A model generated the notes under the pieces. It ran no database searches. It had not been told where the DNA came from and saw only the letters and a program-made list of their open reading frames with translations. A DNA stretch of 64,000 nucleotides from Acanthopleura granulata (taxonomy: Eukaryota > Mollusca > Polyplacophora > Chitonida > Chitonidae). Both the position numbers and the translations under genes were made by a program. The stretch spans positions 47,408,625 through 47,472,624 of the forward strand of contig JABBOT010000001.1 in the NCBI GenBank assembly GCA_016165875.1. Reading direction: 5' to 3'. Shown here in pieces: positions 13,107-58,835 of this stretch (position 1 is its first letter; each line of letters begins with the position of its first letter).

Positions 13107-13411
13107 TGAATCATGGAAATCGAGGAGACAATGTCTGTACTGGGTATTATGACACCAGAAATCGAGGAGAAAATGTCTGTACTGGGTATTATGACACCAG
13201 AAATCGAGGAGATCATGTTTATGCTGGACATTATGACACCAGAAATCGAGACGATAATATCTCTACTGGGTATAATGGTTCCAGAAATGAAGGAGATCAT
13301 GTCTGCACTGGGTATTATAACATTAGATATCGAGGAAATCAAAAATCGGGAAGACTGGGTATTATGACACTAGAAATCGAGGAGATCATGCCTGTACTGG
13401 GTATTATGACA
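13107..13411. repeat. 42-bp tandem repeat, about seven units
   Basis: Units of 42 bp carry GAAATCGAGGAGA, ATGTCTGTACTGGGTATTATG and ACACCA. They start near 13116, 13158 and 13200 and continue with growing divergence to 13411. As 42 is divisible by three, frames stay open on both strands (a 181-residue frame at 13022-13567, and others). Openness in several frames at once argues that this is a property of the repeat and not a protein. Confidence 0.85.
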
Positions 13412-14409: not shown

Positions 14410-14620
14410 CCGGTGATTACCACCAGGACGCCGAGAGATTCGCCATTGAACTTCACGTAGCTCCACCTACATTGTCCTCCAGGAGCAGCATAACGACAAG
14501 TGATCACCACCAAGACGCCTAGAGATTCGGCATTTAACTTCATGTAATTCCACCTACACTGCCCTCCACAAGCACGACGACGACTGGTGATTACCACCGA
14601 GACACCGAGGTCGAGGTTCT
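14410..14620. repeat. 87-bp tandem repeat, about 2.5 units
   Basis: The motif GAT(T/C)ACCACC(A/G)(A/G)GACGCC recurs at 14415, 14502 and 14589, an exact 87-bp spacing. Each is followed by AGAGATTCGCCATT-like and TCCACCTACA(T/C)TG-like blocks. The overlapping short frames on both strands come from this array. Confidence 0.8.
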
Positions 14621-17967: not shown

Positions 17968-20900
17968 ATGTCTGAAAAACTCATTTCCCTATCCATCCTT
18001 CTAATAACGGTATTCGTCCTTGTGAATGGTCAGCTAAAGTGGCAAGTGCGGCACGATGGCCAATCTGGAGCCCCGGCACAACGCAGGGATGCAGGTTTAG
18101 GCTACGAGCCTGAGAGCAATGTATTGGTTCTATTTGGAGGGAAAGACGAGAAGAATCAACACCTGGATGACACCTGGATATACTCCATATACAGTGGTAA
18201 GATGTAGCCAAAGGAAATAATACTTGTGAAACTACCAATAGTAGGCCCGTAAAGGCTAACCATAGCATGGAATGGTAACCTGAAGAGATACCTATTCTTC
18301 ATCACTTTTGAATCACACTAATACGGTACTTATACTGCCATCATTTTTCTATTTATTTATTTATTTACTTGATTGGTGTATTACGTCGTACTCAAGAATA
18401 TTTCACTTATACGACGGCGGCCAGCATTATGGTAGGAGGAAACCAGACAGAGGGAAACCCACAGCCTTCAGACATTTGCTGGCGGAAATTTCCCACGTAC
18501 GGCCGGGGAGGAAAAGAGCATGAGCTCACAGCGACCGCATTGGTAGGAGGCTTCTGATTCATTACGTGCATCATTTTGGACCTTCAGTTTTGATCATCAG
18601 TTTTGACCTTCACCCAAGATGAATAGCAGATTAGTGTGAAAATCAAAGCTGTCAGAAGTGTTAAACCCATATTCATATGGTGACATGTTAAGCTAGAAGC
18701 ATATATTATGTCACTCATTAAGATTTATCAACAGAAAGAACATGCTGTTTGATTATACATGTATCGTAATCTAAAATATATATATATATGTATATCAGAG
18801 GAAAAGATTAATAGATGTCAAATGTGCCTTAAACATGCGTTGTAGAATTCCCTATAAGTACCAACACGACTTGAACCTAATTGTCATAATAATGAACCTG
18901 CATACACTTATTGTATAGCTAGAAATTTATTTGCTTGCCAGGAAGGTGGCCGGATGGTGGGGGTGGCAGGGGGATCATCTTAGCTTCGATGGCTAAAGCC
19001 TTGGCTCGCTGTACCGCGTGCTCCAATTCAGCTCTCGCTGTTTCCGCCTTTGTTTTAAGTGAGGAGGTTTGTCATGGAGCTGGCGAATTTGGACGATTTA
19101 TCCAAGGCTTATCGGTTCCCTCCACCCACAAACCTTAATTATTTGCAGAGCGATTTAGAACACGAATATGAGCCAAAGTGAAGGCTGACTTTAAACACTG
19201 CGGACATTTACCACACTGATAGTTTCGTGTAGGAGCAGCATTTTGGATGGGGGGGGGGGGGAGTTGCTTGTTTTTGTATCTTACTGTTTACTTGTTTATA
19301 AATGCATAAAATAATGTTACTCTAAGGTATATTACGTTTCACAGGACGATGGCGGAATGTCACATCAAGCGATCGACCTCCTGCGCGGAGAAGTTTTGTA
19401 TATGGTTCTGCCGGAAAACGGTTTTATATCGCAACGGGTGAAGGAGAACCATTGCTTAACGACATCTGGCAGTTTGACTTCAGGTAGACATGTTGCTCAT
19501 TGATTGGCCCACTAGCCCGAGGCCTAACCTGTTCGCTTTGCGCGTTCAAGCTGTGAATTTGTTCGCTGTGACCTATCTGTTCCTCTTACAGGCAGTTCAA
19601 TTTACTACAACCCTAAAGAGCACAGACATATAGCCTGAATTTCGCCCGAGGGGCAAAACTTAGGCCTAATATAACAGGCGGTCTACCACCTCCTTTGACA
19701 AATGGGGTGCATGGTTTTCAGGTTAGCTGTTTGATTAGCTGCTTTGGTTTATTTATTTGCTTAATCGTTGTTTCGCTCAGTACTCAAGAAAAACACATTT
19801 CTATGGCCGAAAGTATGACGGTCTTGCCAAAAAACCTGATACACCTCATTCTCTCATGCCATTTACATCTCTTTCAACTTTGCCAGGCAATTTGATTTCA
19901 AAGGCTTAAGATGAAATGGTGCAGTCATGCATAGAAAGCAGACGAACTTGTATTGCCACAAAAAAAAGAAAAGAAAATGAAACAAAATCTTGAGCAAATC
20001 ATATAAAACTGCAACGTGGTGTCGTGAACAATATAATGGCTATATACAGGTTTTAATCTATGTGGTCGAATGCTCTATATTTGTAGTATAGGAGCCAGTT
20101 TCGTCACGGGCAGGTAAATGTTTGTATGACTCGTTTTATTTTGTTCATTGATTTATTTACTAGTTGATTTAGTGGGAATTTATTTTATTAACCTGGGCAC
20201 GAAGATCTTTCGGTATACTTAATGGGAATGAATCATGGTCTCAACATGACATAGCAGGAGTAAATAGATGACGTCAGACTAAGCGTGACATAATATAAAA
20301 TGTATATTATTCTGTGCATGTCAAGGACACGGGTTAAACTCACATCAGTCTTTAGAACACATGTGCAGTTGTTCTAATAATTTCTTTACAGGTTTATTTT
20401 GTTTAACAACTTAATCATGTATTATTAATCGCATTACCAATACAACCAAGCAGAATAAATTTAGTATACTTGGAGAAGAGTTGTGAATATTGTGAATGTT
20501 TTTGACATACTTTTATTCTGTTTTAAGTATGCACTTTTTCACATTATTTCAGCTCCGAGTTGTGGAAACAACTCCCGCAGTAAGTAACGCTCTTTCACCA
20601 ACATGGCGTATTGGAAATGTCGAGCAAATATCTATCGTACCATTCATAAAAATCGCTTACTTGCAGAATGTCTTTCATATTCTCATTCAGCTCAATAAAG
20701 AACAAAATTGCGATTACAAAACTATTTCCGCTGCCACAGGCATGCGGAACTGCTATTTACAGCCCACTTAAGCAAGGTAATTTAGCGAAGTCATGGTTAG
20801 CCTTTTAACTTTTACATGATTCAGCTTCTTGGTGGCGTCGAGGCGCAATTTCAGCGCATTGCAACATCTACTTGATCCTAGTCTGGAGGCAGATGGGATT

Positions 20901-25600: not shown

Positions 25601-28600
25601 AAATACAGAGCCGTGGCCATTAACTGAGTAATCAAGCTTTCGTGGATGTTCGACAGAGCCCAGTACCTCGAGTGATTAGTGTGGAACCTCCTTTCTCATT
25701 AGTAAGGGTCTTCTCTGAAGGCATAGGTTATAAACAGATATTCTCTGTTGTAAAACTGTAAAGACATGCATATATACACGTACCTGCTGGTATCCATGCG
25801 ATATGGTGCTCTATTTCAGTTTGTGAAATAAACACGACGCAATCGAAACACCAAATAGGCCTACACGAAGTTTTCGCCTCTCGCATTGTGCATGTTCAAG
25901 TTATATTACAGGTTTGCCTCTAACATCTGGATGCCTGGGGGTCGGCTTCACAAAACGATTTTGGACTTTATCCCAAAATTGTTATCCAAATTAAACTGTG
26001 AAATACATACATCACATCGGTGATGCATACTGATTCTATGCTGTTATAATGCGATTTCACCGAAGTTTGAGCATCTAGCATCGATTATTTTATTTTTCAG
26101 AAAAGTTTTGGGCTTTTGGGCCAAAATCATTTTGCGAAACACGCCCCTGGACTTAAATATTTGACGTCGCAGTTTGTGTCCTTACAGTTTACTTGGGGTT
26201 GATACGACGGCTTTCTTACAAAGTAAGTACATAGAACAGATTTTTAATCCAATGCGTAAAGTGAAATGACTGCATGTTATCTGGTTTGCTTTTAGGAAAA
26301 TGATTCTCCGGACAGACGAGCTTCTGCTGCCATGGTGACAGTGAAGGAAGGTATTTATATGTTTGGGGGAGTTTCCAGGAAGAGGTAGGCACAACTCCAT
26401 TTTACCCAGCAGTTATGTCTGTTTAATCTGAAGAATAATGGGCAAAATATATCTGCGAAGGAATCATTATGACAGGAATGTCACTATTCATCAGCTTGAC
26501 ATGGTGATGTGTTCATGTGTAAATGGTTCAGTTTTAGAAACAAAAGTATATGGTCATGATGCTTAATGGCAGAGACTATTAATTTGTTACTTGTGTGGGA
26601 GTCAGCGCAGATTCATCCCCAAACCGATATCCATGCAACTGATCAGCTCTTGACGTTTTCAGTCGCGTGCTCGAAGTAATTTCGTGTTGGTTCAGCTATG
26701 ACTTTATTTATTTTTTTATTTCACTTATACGACATGGTGGGAGCATTATGCTGGGAGGAAACCGGGCAAGACCCAGGGGAAACCCAGGACCATCCGCAGG
26801 CTGCTGGTGGGCCTTCCCACGTACAATATGAGAGGAAGCCAGCCTAAGCTGGGCTTGAGAGCACAGCGATCACATTGATGAGAGCTACCTGGGTCATTTT
26901 AATGCACTAACGCGTTGTCCCCTTAGCAACGGAGGCCCCGAGAGATAGTATTGTTAAACTAATATTACACAGAAGCTCTGATGGGGGTAAAAAAACTATT
27001 TGAAATGTATGTGTCCTTTGATTCTAGTGGCCGTCCCTTGAATGACCTGTGGCTGCTTGAAGGCGATGTGGACCAAACTCCTATAATTGACTCCTGTAAC
27101 CGACTGTTTTTCAATCACATTATGGTACATGGAATACTGATGTTCCTGGGTTGGGGTGTGTTTCTCCAGGCGGGTGCCTTCATTGCCAGATACTGCAAAG
27201 GCACCAGTTCTATGTGGTTCCTATTTCACTTTGGACTGCAGGTAACACTACAGACAGTCAATATTGACGTAGATGTGCGCACATCTAGATGGCCCAATCG
27301 CATCACGAAAACATCGTACGCTATATAGCATTTGTTTATTTATTTGATTGGTGCCTTACGCCGTATTGAAGAATATTTCATACACTTATGCGACGGCGGC
27401 CCGCATTACAGTGGGAGAAAACCCACTGCCATCTGCAGGATGCTGACAGACCTTCCCACATACGTACTATACAGCATTTGTATTAATCGTTTCCAAAAGT
27501 AATCACAAAGATAAACAACAGGCTACCCCAAGATGGCGCTTCAATATTTGTCTTTGATTACATTAGCAGATACTTCGGAAGTGCAGAAGTCTCCACCGAG
27601 TCCAAACTACAACCGGTTCATTGCATTGTGCAGATTTATCACTGTACAAATGATGCCATATGCCACATTCATTAATTCAGGAGAAATCACAACAACAACA
27701 GTGACTGTGTTTCTGTTCAATACAAAGAGTCACACAGTATATCTTTACTCTGTAAAAAAACTCCTATTCAAGTACCCCCGCTTTGTTTTTACATGGAGGT
27801 GTTTTGAAGATGTCTCGCGCGGTGACAAATCGTGTGGTGTTTTGCAGAGATAAAGTCATTTTCCTTTTTTAGAAATTGGTACGAGAGAAAGTCACGTGTG
27901 CATTATGTACACTCGTTTGTTTCCACAATCGTAAATAAAAACAGTAAGAACGCACAGAAATGGTGATTTAAACAATACTGTAAATCTGATACGTAGCCTA
28001 GACTTACCAGAACGCTTAAAGATTATGTGCTTGTTTTCTAGTTATCATGATAGTTTTTCATTTTAATGTTAAATTGAACTACATTTCTTCATGGTGCAAA
28101 AGGCAGTATGAGAAATATTAATCCATGACCTTTTGAAGACAAGGTGCGTGTAATATGAAATATGGTAAACGTACGAACATGTTTCCAAACTGTAACAGAA
28201 ATGGTGTTTTCATGGTGTGCAATATCAAAACATCTGTTTTTAGTGTGCATAGTGTTTAATAATGTGTTCTTGTTTTCTTTTCCCCAGATATTTGGCCTAC
28301 TCGTCAGCTTAGCCGGCTTTGTGTTTGCTATATTATCCGTCGATAGCTTCAAAACTCATTTCAGCATGGCTCACAGCATCATCGGCCTGATCGTGATGAT
28401 AGTTGGTTGTCTACAGCCTCTCAACGCGGTTATGTAAGTAGTACACTCATTTCTTACTCGCATGCTGCATCTGTATTATTTCGAAAGGTTTTCAAATCGA
28501 CAATTTCCACATTGTATTCCACATGTCAGTATTCAGAATGTATCTTGCACATGTCAGTATTCAGAATATGAAATCCATATGCCAATATTCAGAATGTATA

Positions 28601-32933: not shown

Positions 32934-35900
32934 TTAAGCCATGGACAAAGTTCCGGCGCCCTGTCCGAAGCCATAACCACTGGGGCCGAACTGCTTACCA
33001 TAGCAGTCTGAAACACAAAACCAAAAAAAACAAAAAGGAAACAAAAAACACACGTATACACACCAAAATGCACAAGATAAGAACACTGAAACATCAGTTG
33101 CTCAATATAAGGTTAGGGTACTCTGTAAATTTTCATTTCCAATGGTCAACAGCTTTGTGAATGACAAAGCCAGCAAATTCCTCGTTGATTTTCATATTTG
33201 AGAATAACAAAGCGATGGCCAAATTTAAAAATTTTGGGGGGCTCGCAAACCGACAGTCCAAATATTAGTAACTGAATGCTCAAACTTGGCTCAGCTTGTA
33301 TTGCAACAGCACAGAATCAGCGGTCAGAGTTGTATCGATTTAATATAAACATATTTAACGACTTTTAATTTGGATTGCACTTTTAGGTTTAAGCACGAAA
33401 TCACTATGAGAAGTGAGTCCCAGATCTGAAGTACACCACTCAGTACTTGTTCAGTGTTCCTGAATGTTTCTCATCAAATCTTCATCTCCGAGAAGTTATA
33501 CAGTGTCATTTATTTATTTATTTTCTTTTTTTTTATATTTATTTGATTGCTGTTTTGTTACGCCGTACTCAAGAACATTGCACTTATACGACGGCGGTGG
33601 GAGGAAACCGGGCAGAGCCCGCGGGAAACCCACGACAATCCACAGGTTGCTATACAGGGTCATGTTACCTGCATGTGTATGTACAGAACTGAAAGGGAAA
33701 GTGAATTCCTTGCGTGTTGTATATCCAGGAGAGTGACTTACTAGCTGAACCCAAATAAGATAAAATTGCGATGATTAATGACGTCATAGTTTCATTTACG
33801 CCATTCACGCGTTGTCCCTTTGAGACGAAACATGTTTTCTCGAAGTCGCTAAGCTCAACAATATTGTTCTCGAATGAGTGAGTGAATGCTTGGGGATTAA
33901 CGTCGTACTTAACAATGTTTCTGTCACATGACGAGGAGGAGTCCTCCTGGGTGTGCTTATAGTGTGTCTTCTTGCTTAAAGTGCTGCCGCCACTGGAATA
34001 TTATGCCGAAAATCTCTGCTAAGATCCAAAGATACCGAAGACAAAGAGTTTGGTATGACCCGACAAGAACTTGAACCTGGGTCTCCCGACCTCGAGGCGG
34101 ACGCTCTTACCACTGGATAACGAGGCGGTCTATTGTTCTCGAAATGACAGTATTGGGCGTGTTATTCTGCAATGACCATACATGTTTTGTCTTTACTGGC
34201 TGCAACTCCACTCGTTTCGTTTTCGTTTGGTGTTGGCCATGCTCATCTCAATAACAGACACAACTCATTACGCCGATCAGAGACAGTTGAACTTACTTTT
34301 GCAGTAGATCTCGGTTTCGTGCTTGTTGGTATTGGTAGAGTCGAGAGACTTGTGGCAGGTTGCGCAGTTAAAGCACGTCTTGTGCCATGGCTGAAACCAA
34401 AAATCATAGTCATCAGAAACGTCAGTCGTCAGTAAAGATTAACTCATATGTCAAATTATCGGCTGATTTTACTGTGGAGTCGTCCTACATCTGGAATATT
34501 AAATAACATCATATAAGAAATAATGAGACGCTAGTTACACCTATTGACTGGTTGATACAGATTAATACCTTTGATTCTTGCACTGATAGCAGGAGCATAG
34601 GCCAATCACTTGTACTGTCCGTTTGGACCTCAGCTGATTACACTGTTTGTAATGCAATTCGCCAGTCCGTCTATGCACATCCGGGCGCTTCCCCTACATG
34701 AGGAGGAGGAAAGCAACCCAGCGATGAAATAAATATCACCAGAAGGGAGGCCTGTATGGAAATGAACAACAGTGGGCTACATTCTGAGAGCAATGCCTCA
34801 GAATGACCAGAAATAAATGTATGTCAGAAGAACATAGCAATCTGCAGACCTGTGTAGAACACAAAAAGTCTGAAGGCTAAACTTAGACGGCTAACTCATT
34901 TAGCCCGCTAACAATTCTGTGTAACCCGTTTCACAAAGAAAATATTTGGCTATCCACTAAAGCTTTTGTCTTACATTTTGAAAGCTAGCCTGAAATCCTT
35001 AGTTATTGTCCATGCTGGCTAGGAGGAAGAATATTCGCCTTCTGTCACTTCCATGATTGCGGGAGGAACAGCGCAAATGCCCGGATGTCCATGATCTCTA
35101 ATACATTTATTGAGAGTTATTATGTTTATTGTTGTTTTTTTTTGTTGTTTTTTTTTTTCATTGAGTGAGCGGGGGCAAGTGTCAGGCAAAAAGAGATAGT
35201 AAAGACAACCAGATTGCCGATTTAGTGCTCACAACACTAACATACTGTCAGCTTTAGGTGCAGCACTGAACTCCTGTCATTTTGCCTGCAGGGCGCACAA
35301 TCTGCCGGTGTTGTCGGTAAATATAATGCCGGTGTCGACACATGCGTCATCAATCCATTGTCCTGACTACACTTTGCCGGTGTCGCCACATTTTGCCTGC
35401 GTTAACGCATATAAGACATCAACGACATTGCTCTTACTGGCACATTGCCGGTGTCAATACTTTACCTTTGTCGACACGAATCCGTCATCAACCCGTTGTC
35501 CTTTTTGGCACATGGCCGGTGTCCACGTTGCAAATACTGATATGACTGGTATTAGCTAGGATAGATCGAGACTTACCACGGTGGACCCAATGGCCCTTTC
35601 GGCGTCATAGACTCTCTTGGCGCAGCGTGGACAACCTCCCTCTACGGGGCCAGCCATCGAGGGGCCAATATGGACCTCGGTGGGACGGTTGCTGAAGTAA
35701 AGAGTATACAAGTAAAAACTGGTGTAAGTGTTTTCCATGTGTCGGAAGAGGCCCAATCAGAGTGTTGAAGAAGTTGTCGCTATGTATGATATTTCAGTCA
35801 TGAAAGATGAAACGCTGTGATAAGGGCGTATCAGGAAAGCGTTAGTTTGTACTTTAGGTGGATTCAGGAACCAACAAACTTAACTTTCTGGCTACCCTAT

Positions 35901-37014
35901 GCTACGGTTCATGTACATAAAACTAACAAGCATTACCGTTAATCACAGGTATAACGTTCTTTTTTTCACAAAAATGAAACCATTTTGCAATAAGTGTTTG
36001 AAGTGAGCATTTTACAATACCTACATTGGAAGTATTGCTCTTACAGCCTTATAGAAAATCAAAAATGGTTTTATTTTTCGAAATCGCATTATTTGTTGTT
36101 ACTTTTGTTCATGCAAATTATCAGTGGAACCATTTGTAGTGATTTACTTTTCCCAGCTTTACCAACTTAAGTATACTCATTACTGTGTATATATTTCAAA
36201 CAATAGAACATTTTAACTGAAGTTTAAACCTGTCAGCTTACCTCATCTGGCACTCCATGTTGCCAAACTGACTGCCGGTGTCCATGCTGAGAGCGCCTGC
36301 GCCGCCTCCGAAGCCGTAGCCCTTTGGTCCAAACAGCCGGCCATGGCAACCTTTACAGTAGAGCTTGTCCTCGTGAGTGGAGCTGTTTGTACTGTCAAGC
36401 ATCTTGTTGCACATTTCTGATAAGAAAGTAGTGATGCATGTTTGATAGAATAATCAGTGGTAGACCCCCTACATGCGAACATCTTCCGTGAAAAGAAAAC
36501 ACCATATAGACCTAAACATATAGTTGTTTTCTTTTCCTTTAAAGCCCAGTTTTGTACGCTTGACCGTGTTATTACATGTATTTGCTGGTGGGTGGATAGA
36601 AAGTTTGGCCGGTGGTCAATTAAACAATGGAATCATAAGGATATCTTCTCCGAAAAGTTGTCTCAAAAATGCTCGATTATATTAATACAGTTTACCGGGT
36701 ATATACCATTTGTTACACCCCTGGACACCATGTTAAAGAACTTAAAACTCGCTGTTGGCTCTGTCAAAGTGAGCCATAACTACCAAGGCACCGTATCTTA
36801 TACAGATATGAAGTTCACTTAGCTAAGTGCTACTTAGTACTGAGTATGCTTTATGAAACTGGCCCCTGGCATACAAGTGGCTGTCGCCTGAAGACTCACC
36901 GCACTTGAAGCAGAACTTGTGCCACTTGAAGCCACCTGCCAGTCTCTCCTCGGCGGCATACACGGATTTGCCGCATTTCGGACACCTAGGAATCTCCTGA
37001 GGTTTGAACGGCAT
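32934..37014 (-). CDS. CSRP: Two-LIM cysteine- and glycine-rich protein (CRP/muscle LIM family)
   Basis: Coding exons on the minus strand are 37014-36900, 36416-36242, 35691-35577, 34390-34297 and 33007-32934. All have GT-AG borders and agreeing phases. The joined product is 190 residues, the usual CRP size. LIM1 spans residues 11-62 and LIM2 117-168; each has the full C-x2-C-x17-H-x2-C-x2-C-x2-C-x17-C-x2-C zinc pattern. Each is followed by the CRP glycine-rich stretch ([12 protein letters not shown] and [12 protein letters not shown]). CRPs are adaptor proteins that bind alpha-actinin, actin filaments and, in the nucleus, transcription factors, and in invertebrates they are mainly muscle proteins. 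The protein ends at GTLSMA. The ATG at 37014 follows a 30-nt untranslated stretch with an acceptor (TTTTCAG) before it, so a 5' non-coding exon lies upstream. Which of the several CRP paralogues this is cannot be told. Confidence 0.93.
33510..33655 (-). mobile_element. 5'-truncated family A SINE in a LIM-gene intron
   Basis: The plus strand shows TTATTTGATTGCTGTTTTGT, TACGCCGTACTCAAGAACAT, TATACGACGGCGGTGGGAGG and ACAATCCACAGGTTGCT. It lies in the last intron (33008-34296), in the same orientation as the gene. Confidence 0.8.
33871..34134 (-). mobile_element. Full-length tRNA-derived SINE of a second family (family B)
   Basis: On the minus strand the head reads CCTCGTTATCCAGTGGTAAG (A-box type), then GCGTCCGCCTCGAGGTCGGG, then GGTTCAAGTTC (B box). 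The body is unlike family A. It ends in TTAAGTACGACGTTAATCCC followed by a short CATTCACTCACTCATTC tail. It sits in the last intron of the LIM gene beside a family A copy. The tRNA-like part is intact enough to define RNA polymerase III boxes. Confidence 0.7.
35275..35545. repeat. Degenerate minisatellite in a LIM-gene intron
   Basis: GCCGGTGTCGACAC, CGTCATCAA(T/C)CC(A/G)TTGTCCT and CACATTGCCGGTGTC recur four or more times with variable spacing. It lies just beyond exon 35691-35577, in the intron towards the 3' end. Confidence 0.6.
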
Positions 37015-46365: not shown

Positions 46366-46438
46366 ATGATATATGAGCCGAGATCATCAAGAAGGGATGT
46401 CTCACGCAATAAATTTATAAGATAACTTGTTATCAGAT

Positions 46439-46686
46439 AGAGGCGTCCGAGGCTCAGTCGGTTAGCTTGCTAGCGCAGCGCAATGACCCAGAAAGCCTCC
46501 CACCAATGCGGTCGCTGTGAGTTCAAGCACAGCTCATGCTGGCTTCCTCTCCGGCCGTACGTGGGAAGGTCTGCCAGCAACCTGCGGATGGCCGTGAGTT
46601 TCCTTCCACCATAATGCTGGCCGCCGTCGTATAAGTAAAATATTCTTGAGTACGGCATAAAACACCAATCAAATAAATAAATAAAT
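46439..46686 (+). mobile_element. Full-length family A SINE
   Basis: The head is CGTCCGAGGCTCAGTCGGTT then AGCTTGCTAGCGCAGCG, with GTGAGTTCAAGCACAGC as B box. The body is complete and ends in GTACGGCATAAAACACCAAT then CAAATAAATAAATAAAT. The flanks GTTATCAGAT (46429-46438) and GTTAACAGAT (46687-46696) look like a 10-bp target-site duplication with one mismatch. Confidence 0.9.
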
Positions 46687-46699
46687 GTTAACAGATCGT

Positions 46700-52249: not shown

Positions 52250-53115
52250 TGACAGTCGTCCCGTCATTGTGAACCGTTGATACCGTTGACAACTGTGCTC
52301 ACCAACCGTTCCGTCAATCTGAAGAACTTGACACACTGTGTTCGTCACCCGTTATGTCAGTCTGGACCGTTGGCATACTTCGCTAACCACCTTATATGTC
52401 AGTCTGAGCCGGTGACGAATTGTGCTCACCAACCGTACATTCAGTCTAAAAGGTTGGTATACTTTGCTCACCAACCGTTGGTATACTATAATCACCAACC
52501 GCTCAGCCAGTGTGAACAATTGGCCTATTCTGCCCACAAAACATTCTATCCATCTGAACCAACTGTACACCCCCTCTTTCACCTCTTTCAGCCTGAACCT
52601 AGTATACTGTGCTCCACAACCGTTCAGTCAGTCTAAACTGTTATCATTGCATGCTCACCAACTATCCAGTCTGTCTGAACTGTTGGCATACTGTGCTCAC
52701 CAACAGTGCTACCAGTCTGAACAGCTCACCAAGTGCGTTCACAACCTGTTCAATCATACTGCGTTCACCAAGTGTGTTCACAACCTGTTCATTCATACTG
52801 CGTTCACCAACCGTTCAATTCAGTCTAAATCTTTGGCGTACTGTGGTCTCAAATCACACAGTAAGACAATACTGTGAGCATGTGCTTGCCAACGGCTCTC
52901 CAACGACATACTGTGTTCACAAACACTTCAGTCTAAACCATTGGTATACTGTGTTCACCATTTGTTCAATCAGTCTGAGTTGTTCACATACTGAGTTCTC
53001 AAGCGTCAAGTCAGTGTGAACGGTTGGCATACTCTGCTCGCCAATCTGTCTGAACCGGCGGTATACTGTAATCACCAGATCTGAACTGTTGGCATACTGT
53101 ACTCACCAACCGTCC
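52250..53115. repeat. Minisatellite of about 42-45 bp units
   Basis: About twenty imperfect units of the type CTGAACCGTTGGCATACTGT then GCTCACCAACCGTTCAGTCAGT. Long frames at 52277-52636, 52422-52877 and 52609-53019 are each open in different phases through the array and are treated as repeat-borne. The array ends a few bases before a candidate exon of the lyase gene. Confidence 0.85.
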
Positions 53116-53293: not shown

Positions 53294-55451
53294 GTATGTA
53301 TGACTGGTTCGACTTAATTTACCGTGAACCTTTACCCATTCAGCGGCGTAACTTCATGGGTAGACTAATTGTTTGTTGACTGTGGGGTTGCCCTTCCATC
53401 CACGCCCATGGCTCTGTCCGTGTACCAAGTCCGGGACCGCGCGAAATCTCCCACCTAGTTGATAATTTAGTTGATAGCCTTATACATATCAATCTCCTTT
53501 TCATCACTGAATAAACAGCAAGGAAAAAATTCTACGGAATGTTGTCAGGGCGAGAAAAAAAAGTACCGCTTTCCCTGTTTGTTTTGAATACACAACCACA
53601 GTACTAATGACCATGTTGTTATAGTTTATAGTTTAAAGCATAATTGGTATTTGCATAAATACAATCATTACACATTGATGAATTTGTTATTGCCCAGTGG
53701 TTATAGTAAGTCAACCTTACCTCTAATGTTAATAAAAAAATAGTCGTGTGATGCATATACAGCATTATAGTCGTTAACCTCATGTTTTATTGCATGATTC
53801 ATGGTATTCGAATTGAAACATCTGAAATCAAAAAGGCGATACAATTAGCGGGTAACAATCGTCAGGATGACGTGATAAAGTGGTCATATCACTTTTTTGT
53901 CGCGTACTGTGTTGATATTATTTCCTTTTCTTGGTGTGACAAATTGAATCTGATCTTATATATCCAGATCAGTCAATTTATTCTCTCAAGTAAAGCGACG
54001 GCATGTGAAAGTGTTATAGACATCTGTAGCAGGCGATTAGCAGGATAGAAATCACAGATGTGTAAATTAAACATTTTTTGACCGTCAACGTTTGTAGTAG
54101 AACATGTTACACGGAGATGCCGTTACCACGTTCGCTTTCAAGCTGCTTGTCACGTTGCAAGTGTTGACCTACACCACGGTTTAGGCACGTGCTCCTGTGT
54201 GCCGTTGTTGACCAATTAAACCAAGTCAGTAAATAGACCTGTGAATGATCAGAGCAGTAAGAAATGAGAGTAGAGATGTTCCCATACACTGAATCAACTG
54301 ACATGAAAAGATGAGAGGACGTTTTTGAGCGGGAGCTCTTCCCCACTGTCCCCTATTTATTCTGTGTCTCCTTCGAGGGTGTTAGCACAGGCCTGCTACA
54401 GAGTCGGTATTGACTGCAGAGACGATTCTCTCTCAATACGACACAGACATCGTCGGGGTGACTTGAAAGTGTAACAAACATAGGGTACAATTCAGTACAA
54501 TTGTCTCATTCCCCACGCAACAAAAACTTGGAGTTACCAGGGCACACACGATCATTTCCTGCACTATTTGGAGTCGATGCACGACACTTCATCCTCCATG
54601 AACACCTGGCCCCGTATCTTCCTTGTACGCGTGACACCGCACCTTTCATATACGCGTGACACCGCTTTTTTCATTACGGGTGACAGTACATCTTCCATGC
54701 ACTCTAAAAGCCAATCTGTTGATTTGGCCTAATATTATATTTTCTGAGTGATACTGGAATAGGCTATGTTACAGCAACAGAATATAATATTATAGACAAC
54801 ACAATTGATACACCGTTACACCACTAAAAATAACACAACAAGTCCGCCTTATATAGGAATAGCACAATCTATTCTGCCATCACTCAGAAAACGCAGATAT
54901 TTATTGTCTTGAGAGTGTTTAAAGGGGTGACATAACTCTTCTGTGTATAAATGTATTTATGCATTCTGGTATATAAGCTCCATCTTCTGTAACGATGTGT
55001 GGCATCGCGCCACGCTATCGAAAACATGTGAGAGATGTCTGCTATTTGATTAAGAGCAAGTCCGGTCTGATTATTTTTTTAAGTGATAAGTGATAAGTTT
55101 TGATAAGTTTACAGTAAAGAGCCATCAAAAACATCTGGCTTTTAAATCTACATTGTGTCTTAAATATTTCGTACATATAAATTGTTCAAACGTTTATTAA
55201 TGAAACTGTATGAAAATAAGCATAAAAGCTTCCGATGGGACGTATATAATTTCCTCTTCGTCTGCACGTTTGGGTATAAATACATAGTTTTTAAATGGGA
55301 TTGTATCATCTGTTCTAATTGGAAATTGTGTCGTTGCAATATATTTCGTGAACCCACTTTCAAGAAAAACTATGCCTATGTATTTCCAGTAGTTATGAAA
55401 AAGATTAATAAAATTTTTGTTTTTTGTTTTGTTTGTTTGTTTTTTTTTAAG

Positions 55452-56864
55452 ATGGAACCATTCAAGATTAAGATGGTAGATGAGATGCCGGTATCTTCCA
55501 GATCTGAAAGAGAACGAGTGCTGAAAGAGGCCGGGTATAACCTTTTCCTAGTTCCGGCAAAGTACGTGACATACGACCTCCTGACGGATTCTGGGACCGG
55601 AAGTATGAGCAGCCTTCAATGGGCTGCCCTCATGAAAGGTGACGAGAGCTATGCAGGTGCCAGGAGTTTCCTAATGTTCGAGAAGACGGCGAAAGACATC
55701 ACGGGCTTTCAATATTTTCTTCCGATCCACCAAGCTCGAGCAGCCGAAAGGATACTTTTCCACGTTGTAGTCAAAAAAGGTAGCCTTGTGCTAGGCAATG
55801 GCTTTCTTGATACAGCCAAGGTGCATCTTATGCGTTGCGGTGCTATCCCAGTTGACCTATCCGTCGACACTTCCAAGTGGGGCAATTTTAACGGTGATAT
55901 TCAAATCAGCTTACTAGAATGTTACCTAGCCAAGGGTAAGCCAGAAGTATCATTAGTGTACGTCTCCGTGACCAGCCACAGAAACGGTGGACAACCCGTC
56001 AGCATGGCGTGTGCCCTGGCCATCTCTCAAATGTGCCGCAAGCATCGTATACCCTTCTACCTGGACGCTTCTCGCGTGCCCACAAACAGTTGGTTCGTGA
56101 GGTCGCGAGAAAGAGCGTTCGCCAAGCGGCAGCCGATGCAGATCGCCAGGGAAATGTTCTCTCTGTGCGACGGCTGCCTGATGTCCACAAAGAAGGATGG
56201 TATATGTAACACAGGGGCCTTCCTGGCCACAAGCTCTGCTCAGCACCACGCCCTCTTCTCCCAGCACCTGATTCTGACTGAGGGGTTCGTAACTTACGGT
56301 GGCATGACGGGTAGAGACATGGAGGCCGCGGCTGTCGGCTTGATGGAGGCACTGGACGAGAACTACTTGCGATTTAGAGTGGAATCCTTGGCAGATTTCG
56401 GCGAAATGCTCAAAAAAAGAAGTGTGCCTATCATAGAGCCCGTTGGGGGTTACGCCATCTGTATCGATGCCGGTACTTTACTCTCTCACCTCGACCCCAG
56501 CGCCTGTCCCGCTTGGGCGCTCAACTGTGCTATGTATCTGGAAGGGGGCATACGGGGGTCAGAGGAAGGGCATGTGATGAAAGATGTGGAAGCCAATGGT
56601 AAAGGACCCGCCGCTTCCAAGCAACTGCTGCGTTTGGCACTGCCTGGTCGCGTCTATACCCACTCGCACCTACAGCACATTAGTGACGTCATAGCGTCTG
56701 TGGTGGCACGCAGAACCAAAGTGTCGGGCATGCGCCTGAAAGAATCTTCCTCCCCATTACGACATTTCACTGCCGTCCTTGAGCCAGTCAACAGGGAAAT
56801 GTTTCCTAGCGTCACCAAAGGGAAGGAGTCGGTGCCCCAACTGAATAGTTACAGACGACATTGA
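55452..56864 (+). CDS. Tryptophanase / tyrosine phenol-lyase-like PLP enzyme
   Basis: This 470-codon uninterrupted frame aligns along its whole length with bacterial tryptophanase (471 residues in E. coli), a fold-type I PLP enzyme that splits tryptophan, or tyrosine in its sister family, into indole or phenol, pyruvate and ammonia. Conserved features are LLTDSGTG (43-50), KGDESYAG with Tyr67, Q-x-R at 94-96, GGQPVS (179-184), Asp205 and Arg208, the STKKD motif with PLP lysine 248 (245-249), EGFVTYGG (277-284), Arg394 in LLRLALP, and LRHFTA (436-441) with His438. Oddities are His176 where relatives have Asn before GGQPVS, Ala95 for Gly in the phosphate loop, Glu372 where tyrosine phenol-lyases have Arg, and about 20 extra residues at the C-terminus. 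The frame opens further upstream to 55182, but that part is T-rich and low in complexity, ending in an acceptor, and is read as intron. The coding part is visibly GC-richer than its flanks. The substrate is uncertain. A bacterial origin by transfer is likely but needs a phylogeny. Confidence 0.92.
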   Translation: MEPFKIKMVDEMPVSSRSERERVLKEAGYNLFLVPAKYVTYDLLTDSGTGSMSSLQWAALMKGDESYAGARSFLMFEKTAKDITGFQYFLPIHQARAAERILFHVVVKKGSLVLGNGFLDTAKVHLMRCGAIPVDLSVDTSKWGNFNGDIQISLLECYLAKGKPEVSLVYVSVTSHRNGGQPVSMACALAISQMCRKHRIPFYLDASRVPTNSWFVRSRERAFAKRQPMQIAREMFSLCDGCLMSTKKDGICNTGAFLATSSAQHHALFSQHLILTEGFVTYGGMTGRDMEAAAVGLMEALDENYLRFRVESLADFGEMLKKRSVPIIEPVGGYAICIDAGTLLSHLDPSACPAWALNCAMYLEGGIRGSEEGHVMKDVEANGKGPAASKQLLRLALPGRVYTHSHLQHISDVIASVVARRTKVSGMRLKESSSPLRHFTAVLEPVNREMFPSVTKGKESVPQLNSYRRH

Positions 56865-57170
56865 CTCACTGACCCATTTTTCAGCAGAAAAAGTGAGGAG
56901 TCGGCTCTCCTACAGAATAGTTACACGAGACTGACTCACTAACCCATTGTTCAGCAGCATTAACAGCGAGGAGGAGTCGGTTCTCCAAAAGAATGCTACA
57001 CTCTGACTCACTAGCCTATTTTGAGAACACGCAATGAGAAGGAACTGACTCTTCAACAGAATAATTACACTGACTCAATGTCGCATTTTTCAGTATAAGC
57101 ATTGAGAACGGGTCGGCTTTCCAACACAATGGTTACAGGGGACACTCCCTGACGCGTTTCCCCCATTTAT
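56825..57170. repeat. 68-76 bp tandem repeat covering the lyase stop codon
   Basis: Five diverging units start at about 56825, 56897, 56973, 57041 and 57110. Each has GGAGTCGG(T/C), a CTCC-AACAGAATAGTTACA-like block, then TGACTCACT(G/A)(A/G)CCCATTTTTCAG-like sequence. The first unit encodes the last residues of the lyase and its TGA stop; the other four lie in the 3' untranslated region. Confidence 0.8.
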
Positions 57171-57775: not shown

Positions 57776-57781
57776 AATAAA
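57776..57781 (+). terminator. Candidate polyadenylation signal of the lyase gene
   Basis: AATAAA about 910 bp after the stop codon and the first clear one I found downstream. Usage is not shown by the sequence. Confidence 0.3.
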
Positions 57782-58229: not shown

Positions 58230-58835
58230 TACATAATGTTGTGACTTAGCATAACCGCGTACCCTAATACCACATTGTGGCATATTTCTTTATTGTTTAT
58301 TTGATTGGTGTTTTACGCCGTATTCAAGAATATTCCACTTATACGACAGCGGCCAATATTATGGTAAGAGGAAACCGGGCAGTGATTGTAGGAAACCCAC
58401 GGCCAGGTGGTGGCAGACTTTCCCACCTAAGACCGGAGAGGAAGCCATGCATGAGCCGGGTTTGAACTCACAGCGACCGCATTGGTGATTTCCTGGGTCA
58501 TTGCCCTAGCATTGTGACAATTCCCACACCCTATTACCACATTGTGACATATCCTAACATCCCAATACCACCTTGAGACATATCTCCACATTGTGACCTG
58601 TTCTCACACCCTGATATCACATGGTGACATACCCCAACGCCCTGATACCACGTTGTGACATATCCCCATACCTAACACCACATTGAGGCATATCCTCTTA
58701 CCTTATACAACATTCTGACATTTCATCATACTATAATACTTCATGGTGTCATATCCTAACACCCTAATACCACATTGTGACAATTCTAACAACTAAAACC
58801 ACATTGTGACAATTCTAACACCCTTATACCACATA
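58230..58835. repeat. Minisatellite of about 30-36 bp, interrupted by a SINE
   Basis: Units of CCTAATACCACATTGTGACA then TATCC(C/T)(A/C)ACA run from about 58510 to 58835. One unit (ACCCTAATACCACATTGTGG) lies at about 58260-58280, on the other side of the SINE, so the array was split by the insertion. Confidence 0.75.
58287..58513 (-). mobile_element. Near full-length family A SINE inside a minisatellite
   Basis: The plus strand shows TTATTTGATTGGTGTTTTAC, GCCGTATTCAAGAATATTCC, TATACGACAGCGGCCAATAT, GAGCCGGGTTTGAACTCACA and GCGACCGCATTGGTGA. The same minisatellite unit flanks both ends. The last part of the tRNA-like head is worn or missing. Confidence 0.85.

What the first reader, a model, noticed from the sequence alone, without database searches (positions are those of the whole stretch)
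55452..56864. Full-length tryptophanase/tyrosine phenol-lyase-type enzyme in an animal-like genome
The frame aligns end to end with bacterial beta-eliminating lyases and keeps the PLP lysine, the Asp/Arg cofactor contacts, the carboxylate-binding Arg and the LRHFTA motif. This family is mainly bacterial. The surroundings (SINEs, minisatellites, spliced neighbours, a likely 5' intron) show it is integrated in a eukaryotic chromosome. An animal that could release indole or phenol from amino acids would be notable, for instance for indole-derived pigments or defence compounds, but that link is speculation.
Basis: partly seen in the sequence, partly recalled or inferred. Interest (0 to 1): 0.88.

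Follow-up and report, generated by a model that had tools for sequence, protein, structure and literature searches.

The report
Animal tryptophanase with altered active site
A genome that is probably a mollusc's carries an intact gene of a mostly bacterial family of enzymes that split tryptophan or tyrosine, and its cofactor pocket is changed at sites identical in 323 sampled relatives, so it likely acts on something other than plain tryptophan.

Summary
In detail: 55452-56864 (+) is an intact 470-codon PF01212 gene, full length against tryptophanase (TnaA) and tyrosine phenol-lyase (TPL), in animal-type DNA. A splice-acceptor-like sequence precedes the ATG, copies of one SINE-like repeat lie on both sides, and a minisatellite has grown from its own 3' end. 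Its nearest relatives are an unnamed protein (84%) and one of the chiton Liolophura sinensis (52%). The three form one clade (100/96), with two unnamed proteins as sister (100/100), apart from the bacteria sampled. A recent transfer is therefore unlikely, and animal tryptophanases are already in print. The catalytic residues and the indole-NH Asp/His pair are kept. But at 7 of 56 columns invariant in 323 other members, both it and the 84% relative differ. These include the Phe over PLP (now Leu) and the Asn that binds carboxylate and PLP O3' (now His). The specificity position, Ile in TnaA and Arg in TPL, is Glu. I read it as a likely active PLP beta-lyase retuned away from plain tryptophan. 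The substrate is unknown and no activity was tested. New variant of a known kind.

The parts
55452..56864 (+). Coding exon of the tryptophanase/TPL-family protein, 470 codons plus stop (P0001)
55415..55451 (+). T-rich tract ending in AG directly before the ATG: likely 3' splice site of a 5' intron
   Evidence: 13 of 3413 AGs on the + strand of the window have as pyrimidine-rich a lead; not shown by RNA
55806..55808 (+). Leu119, where the Phe over PLP stands in 322 of 322 other rows
   Evidence: role of the Phe from PMC11301627
55809..55811 (+). Asp120, equivalent of E. coli Asp137 (binds the indole NH)
   Evidence: PMC11301627, PMC5805759
55977..55979 (+). His176, where the Asn on carboxylate and PLP O3' stands in 322 of 322 other rows
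   Evidence: PMC11301627
56193..56195 (+). Lys248, PLP lysine
56559..56561 (+). Ser370, equivalent of E. coli Val394 / TPL Met379
56565..56567 (+). Glu372, specificity position (E. coli Ile396, TPL Arg381); Glu in 0 of 322 other rows
56763..56765 (+). His438, equivalent of E. coli His463 (TPL Phe448)
56817..57160 (+). Five decayed tandem units of about 70 bp; the first holds the last 15 codons and the stop
57776..57781 (+). AATAAA, candidate poly(A) signal
58280..58507 (+). Copy of the dispersed SINE-like repeat downstream of the gene
46437..46690 (-). Copy of the same repeat upstream of the gene

Best explanation
The window holds an intact tryptophanase/tyrosine phenol-lyase-family gene in what is likely mollusc chromosomal DNA, and its product is predicted to be a working PLP-dependent beta-eliminating lyase whose pocket has likely been retuned away from plain tryptophan. 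Shown: the ORF, its family, its setting, its clade with a chiton gene, the kept catalytic residues and the replaced conserved ones. Inferred mechanism: the amino acid displaces K248 to form an external aldimine on PLP held by D205, R208 and R96. K248 takes the alpha proton, Y67 of the neighbouring subunit protonates the leaving group, and the side chain leaves, giving pyruvate and ammonia. D120 and H438, which in tryptophanase hold the indole NH, would still accept an NH or OH of the leaving ring. Ser370 and Glu372 in place of Val and Ile would make the ring end of the pocket roomier and acidic, which would suit a leaving group with a further hydrogen-bond donor, such as a hydroxy-indole, better than bare indole. 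Leu119 and His176 would change how PLP and the carboxylate are held. The substrate itself is a guess from side chains.
For: Family and full length. Fold: mean pLDDT 86.4; the 48 best PDB rows are all tryptophanases or TPLs, TM on query 0.73-0.92, best 8sbg. Residues kept: S47, Y67, R96, D120, D205, R208, K248, R394, H438, F439 and S245. Departures: at 7 of 56 columns invariant in 323 other rows, both the window and its 84% relative differ (TPL numbering G99A, F123L, T126A, N185H, G265A, H343Y, R409G). The same leave-out count gives 0 of 56 for Liolophura and 0 of 58 for the P0004/P0165 pair. Glu at the specificity position occurs in 0 of 322 other rows. The stem of the window pair is long, 0.9 and 1.06 changes per column against median end branches of 0.37 and 0.39, followed by tips of only about 0.1, so the changed sequence is held. 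E. coli positions 394 and 396 bear on specificity: I396R and V394L were two of the four changes in a TnaA variant with phenol-lyase activity (PMC5805759), and M379A in TPL enlarges the pocket (PMC9262865).
Against: No substrate, transcript or activity is shown. E. coli TnaA, a proven tryptophanase, departs at 6 of 62 such columns and the TPL pair at 4 of 60, so departures alone do not prove a new function. E. coli TnaA also departs at 33 of the 149 columns that are at least 95% conserved, as many as the window. The rows are mostly uncharacterised proteins of bacterial type, partly near-duplicates, so 323 is not a count of independent lineages. Asp133, whose loss left no detectable activity with Trp in P. 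vulgaris, and His458, whose loss left 1.6% of kcat, are both kept, which speaks for an indole-type leaving group. In M379A TPL the polar substrate L-DOPA did worse than in the wild type, though position 381 there is Arg, not Glu.
Confidence: 0.5

Rival explanations
1. [quoted passage not shown]
For: Asp120 and His438, the indole-NH pair, and Phe279 (E. coli Phe304) are kept; the best NCBIfam model is the tryptophanase subfamily; the proven E. coli enzyme also departs at 6 of 62 otherwise invariant columns.
Against: The changes hit the Phe over PLP, the Asn on carboxylate and O3', and the specificity Ile, which is Glu in 0 of 322 others. Scores lie far below the TnaA equivalog cut-offs (338.9 of 825.8 and 410.2 of 750), though bacterial relatives of this branch may miss those cut-offs too (not tested).
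Confidence: 0.27
2. A PLP-binding protein that has lost lyase activity and does something else, or a gene on its way to decay.
For: Seven otherwise invariant positions are replaced, two of them direct cofactor or substrate contacts (PMC11301627).
Against: No stop or frameshift in 470 codons; the catalytic residues checked are kept; the replacements are the same in an 84% relative, and both tips are short.
Confidence: 0.15
3. Contamination or an assembly join: a bacterial gene placed in an animal contig.
For: The CDS has 52.4% GC against 38-40% in 5 kb on each side; no reads could be seen.
Against: The nearest named relative is a chiton gene on an 82-Mb contig. All rows other than P0002 and P0003 in the best-120 lists are at most 49% identical. 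The gene's own 3' end seeds a tandem array that runs into the flank, the same repeat family lies on both sides, and a splice-acceptor-like sequence leads in. Higher GC is common in animal exons (general knowledge).
Confidence: 0.03
4. Several separate transfers into molluscs from related donors rather than one old acquisition.
For: The sister proteins P0004 and P0165 are unnamed, so the make-up of the sister group is open; only one named mollusc was found.
Against: Window, P0002 and Liolophura are one side of a branch in 100% of 200 bootstrap trees, support 100/96, and all five rows are one side at 100/100.
Confidence: 0.15

Closest known systems
Bacterial tryptophanase, TnaA / tryptophan indole-lyase (EC 4.1.99.1)
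   Same: Fold, PLP lysine, indole-NH Asp and His, carboxylate Arg, leaving-group Tyr
   Different: Phe over PLP is Leu; Asn on carboxylate and O3' is His; specificity Val/Ile are Ser/Glu; five further otherwise invariant positions changed; likely animal host
Tyrosine phenol-lyase (EC 4.1.99.2)
   Same: Fold and PLP chemistry; 36-38% identity in structural alignment among the best TPL rows
   Different: Thr124, Arg381 and Phe448 are Asp, Glu and His
tryptophanase-like protein of Liolophura sinensis (P0003)
   Same: 52% identity, same clade, named animal source
   Different: None of the seven replacements; Leu, not Glu, at the specificity position
Unnamed Logan protein P0002
   Same: 84% identity, all seven replacements and Glu at the specificity position
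   Different: Organism not named; predicted start 11 residues later
Dicathais orbita tryptophanase transcript (PMC4962025, passages seen)
   Same: A tryptophanase reported from a marine snail
   Different: Its sequence could not be seen here; its relation to this gene is not tested

Membership tests
Tryptophanase/TPL family (PF01212; NCBIfam NF009709 subfamily) | Score above the curated cut-off | tested here: met
   170.8 bits against 27; 500.8 against 285
Tryptophanase/TPL family (PF01212; NCBIfam NF009709 subfamily) | PLP lysine, PLP N1 Asp, carboxylate Arg, leaving-group Tyr | tested here: met
   K248, D205, R394, Y67
Tryptophanase, EC 4.1.99.1 | Indole-NH Asp (E. coli D137) and His (H463) | tested here: met
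   D120 and H438
Tryptophanase, EC 4.1.99.1 | Phe over PLP (P. vulgaris F132) and Asn on carboxylate and O3' (N194) | tested here: not met
   L119 and H176
Tryptophanase, EC 4.1.99.1 | Hydrophobic residues at E. coli V394 and I396 | tested here: not met
   S370 and E372; Ser at 394 also occurs in 5 of 322 other rows, Glu at 396 in none
Tryptophanase, EC 4.1.99.1 | TnaA equivalog cut-off | tested here: not met
   410.2 of 750 (NF053783); 338.9 of 825.8 (TIGR02617)
Tryptophanase, EC 4.1.99.1 | Releases indole from L-Trp | not testable with these tools
   needs an enzyme assay
Tyrosine phenol-lyase, EC 4.1.99.2 | Thr124, Arg381, Phe448 | tested here: not met
   D120, E372, H438
Tyrosine phenol-lyase, EC 4.1.99.2 | Equivalog cut-off | tested here: not met
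   378.2 of 720.7 (TIGR02618)
Horizontally acquired animal gene | Nested among or beside bacteria, intron-poor, in host DNA | tested here: inconclusive
   Protein read from one exon apart from a likely 5' intron, and kin to bacterial enzymes incl. Chloroflexota and Planctomycetota, but the two sister proteins are unnamed, the tree is unrooted and few other eukaryotic rows were in reach

The most novel reading that the evidence does not exclude
A mollusc lineage took a bacterial-type tryptophanase and rebuilt its active site into a new amino-acid beta-lyase: an acidic, roomier ring pocket (Ser370, Glu372), Leu in place of the Phe over PLP and His in place of the Asn on PLP O3'. It makes an animal-made hydroxy- or otherwise substituted indole, or another leaving group, that no characterised family member is built to release.
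Probability: 0.35. Interest if true: 0.78.

Novelty: new variant of a known kind. Interest (0 to 1): 0.56.

Why it matters
If active, it is an animal-encoded enzyme for releasing a ring compound from an amino acid, a step usually credited to bacteria. Whether snails or their microbes make the precursors of Tyrian purple is an open question (PMC6562550, start of abstract seen in the listings: origin 'not currently known'); no link of this gene to that pigment is shown. The natural replacement of residues fixed in the sampled family would also test which contacts this well-studied PLP chemistry really needs.

Tried and rejected
Recent transfer or contamination: judged unlikely from the clade with a chiton gene, the repeat family on both sides and the 3' tandem array.

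Tyrosine phenol-lyase: rejected on the three TPL-specific residues and the cut-off.

A viral carrier: one scan of viral contigs found 131 pattern matches and no relative.

A short coding first exon with a GTRAGT donor, phase 0, 2-14 codons, in the 10 kb upstream: one candidate of two codons, inside a repeat copy. The first exon stays unknown; it may be non-coding, use another donor or phase, or lie further away.

Printed copies of the dispersed repeat: none found with three sequence strings. A figure legend in PMC11121367 mentions limpet SINEs of the Nin type but no sequence could be compared, so the repeat is called only SINE-like.

Neighbour genes: Pfam on three + frames of 24-34 kb and three - frames of 33-43 kb gave one LIM match above its cut-off, and one LIM and two propeller-type matches below theirs. 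Ten ORFs gave nothing above cut-off. The rest of the window was not scanned this way.

In print: ten searches, eight of them on this enzyme and two on the repeat, listed no paper that I could recognise as describing an animal tryptophanase with these replacements; only open-licence PMC papers are held and I read listings and passages, not whole papers.

Not done: dN/dS, because the DNA of P0002 was not available; docking; the wider eukaryotic tree.

Full report
What is there. The frame 55452-56864 (+) is open for 470 codons. Pfam gives PF01212 only. NCBIfam gives the tryptophanase subfamily NF009709 above its cut-off, and two TnaA equivalogs and the TPL equivalog well below theirs. It aligns end to end with solved tryptophanases and TPLs. 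A model from a 40-row alignment has mean pLDDT 86.4, and its best solved match is the tryptophanase 8sbg, TM 0.92 on the query.

Setting. No tRNA and no Rfam family at gathering threshold is found in the 64 kb. A dispersed repeat occurs at 14 places in both orientations, among them 46437-46690 (-) and 58280-58507 (+) on either side of the gene. LIM-domain pieces lie on the minus strand near 34.3 kb (above its cut-off) and 36.9 kb (below it). Directly before the ATG stands a T-rich tract ending in AG; 13 of 3413 AGs on the + strand have as pyrimidine-rich a lead. The chiton protein has seven more residues before the matching Met, which fits an upstream exon, but no such exon was identified. Five decayed units of about 70 bp start inside the last 15 codons and run into the 3' flank; AATAAA stands at 57776. 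CDS GC is 52.4%, the 5-kb flanks 39.5% and 38.1%.

Kin. Three protein searches each scored 8000 candidates and listed the best 120. The window's protein is 84% identical to P0002 (Logan, unnamed) and 52% to tryptophanase-like of Liolophura sinensis on an 82-Mb contig. All other rows listed are at most 49% identical (50% for one row in alignment A4). In a tree of 55 rows, chosen from 248 by a 72% identity filter with nine rows fixed beforehand, window, P0002 and Liolophura form one group (100/96), and P0004 joins them at 100/100. In a second tree of 49 rows (14 far rows taken out, 8 added) the five rows including P0165 are one side of a branch at 100/100. The stem of the window pair measures 0.9 and 1.06 changes per column, against median end branches of 0.37 and 0.39. 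The neighbouring rows include Chloroflexota and Planctomycetota enzymes and the alga Vitrella; E. coli TnaA and TPL lie far off. What P0004 and P0165 come from is unknown. The trees are unrooted, so the direction of transfer is inferred, not shown.

Active site. Roles come from PMC11301627 (P. vulgaris, passages), PMC5805759 (E. coli and C. freundii, passages) and PMC9262865 (C. freundii, passages). Matching P. vulgaris to E. coli numbers by a constant offset is mine. Kept: S47, Y67, R96, D120, D205, R208, K248, R394, H438, F439 and S245; the exact PLP contacts of R96 and R208 are recalled. Replaced: in an alignment of 325 rows, 56 columns (at most 5% gaps) are invariant in the 323 others; at 7 of them the window and P0002 share a different residue (A95, L119, A122, H176, A256, Y334, G399). 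Leaving out other groups in the same way gives Liolophura 0 of 56, P0004/P0165 0 of 58 (1 each when left out singly), the TPL pair 4 of 60, 8sbg 2 of 58, L066 3 of 59, E. coli TnaA 6 of 62; over 323 rows left out singly the median is 0. At the specificity position (E372) 322 other rows hold I 312, V 4, M 3, R 2, L 1 (Liolophura, with Leu, was left out of that tally). At S370 they hold V 281, A 16, C 14, S 5, G 2, T 2, M 1, I 1. Over 149 columns at least 95% conserved in 245 rows the window departs at 33, P0002 at 33, Liolophura at 17, P0004 at 16, E. coli TnaA at 33 and the two TPLs at 27 and 29. So the amount of change is that of a distinct family branch; the surprise is its place, on the cofactor and the specificity position, and its timing after the split from the chiton gene.

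Reading. In P. vulgaris Phe-132 sits over the PLP ring in the internal aldimine, Asn-194 holds both the carboxylate and O3', and Asp-133 with His-458 holds the indole NH. This protein keeps the last pair and replaces the first two. With Ser370 and Glu372 the ring end becomes polar. I infer a working lyase whose leaving group carries an NH or OH plus a further donor. The hydroxy-indole suggestion is a guess from side chains, with no docking. Against it, polar L-DOPA did worse in M379A TPL, and the kept Asp/His pair would also fit plain tryptophan.

What is known. tnaA in octopus, corals, sea anemone and others was listed in 2021 (PMC8537960, passages), where the origin in higher eukaryotes was left open. 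A 2016 transcriptome reported tryptophanase in Dicathais orbita, with no match in Lottia gigantea, Octopus bimaculoides and Crassostrea gigas in KEGG (PMC4962025, passages); the two papers differ on O. bimaculoides. None of those sequences could be compared here, and none was named in the three capped lists.

Verdict. Observation confirmed; a recent transfer and a plain Trp or Tyr lyase are not supported. A family member, but a variant whose substrate should be tested afresh.

Noticed in passing
window 56817-57160: A tandem unit of about 70 bp begins with the last 15 codons and stop of the gene; coding sequence seems to have seeded a tandem array in the 3' flank.
   Followed up: partly
window, 14 places incl. 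2328-2592, 18350-18566, 46437-46690, 58280-58507: One dispersed SINE-like repeat in both orientations, pairs 69-88% alike, whose longer copies end in a stretch that reads by eye like a tRNA-type head on the opposite strand.
   Followed up: partly
window 26963-27325 (+): ORF with a stretch (HGILMFLGWGVFLQAGAFIARY) that looks by eye like a cytochrome b561 or DOMON-type reductase exon; no Pfam match.
   Followed up: partly
window 34289-34390 and 36898-36984 (-): Pieces of LIM domain in two frames, probably exons of one neighbour gene; one above and one below the cut-off.
   Followed up: partly
P0149 (not in the window): A tryptophanase of the alga Vitrella brassicaformis groups with rows P0050 and P0099, away from the mollusc clade (with P0050): probably a separate eukaryotic acquisition.
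   Followed up: no
P0004 and P0165 (not in the window): Two unnamed ENA proteins, 74% alike, are sister to the mollusc clade, start at M-E/D-P-F-K without the leader usual in the bacterial rows, and carry Gln in place of the specificity His.
   Followed up: no
window 52253-53108: Imperfect tandem repeats with strand asymmetry (GC skew -0.119 at 52-54 kb) and three overlapping open frames.
   Followed up: no
window 13116-13411 and 14413-14609: Tandem repeats of 42 and 87 bases (multiples of three) overlapping open frames; may be repeat-protein exons.
   Followed up: no
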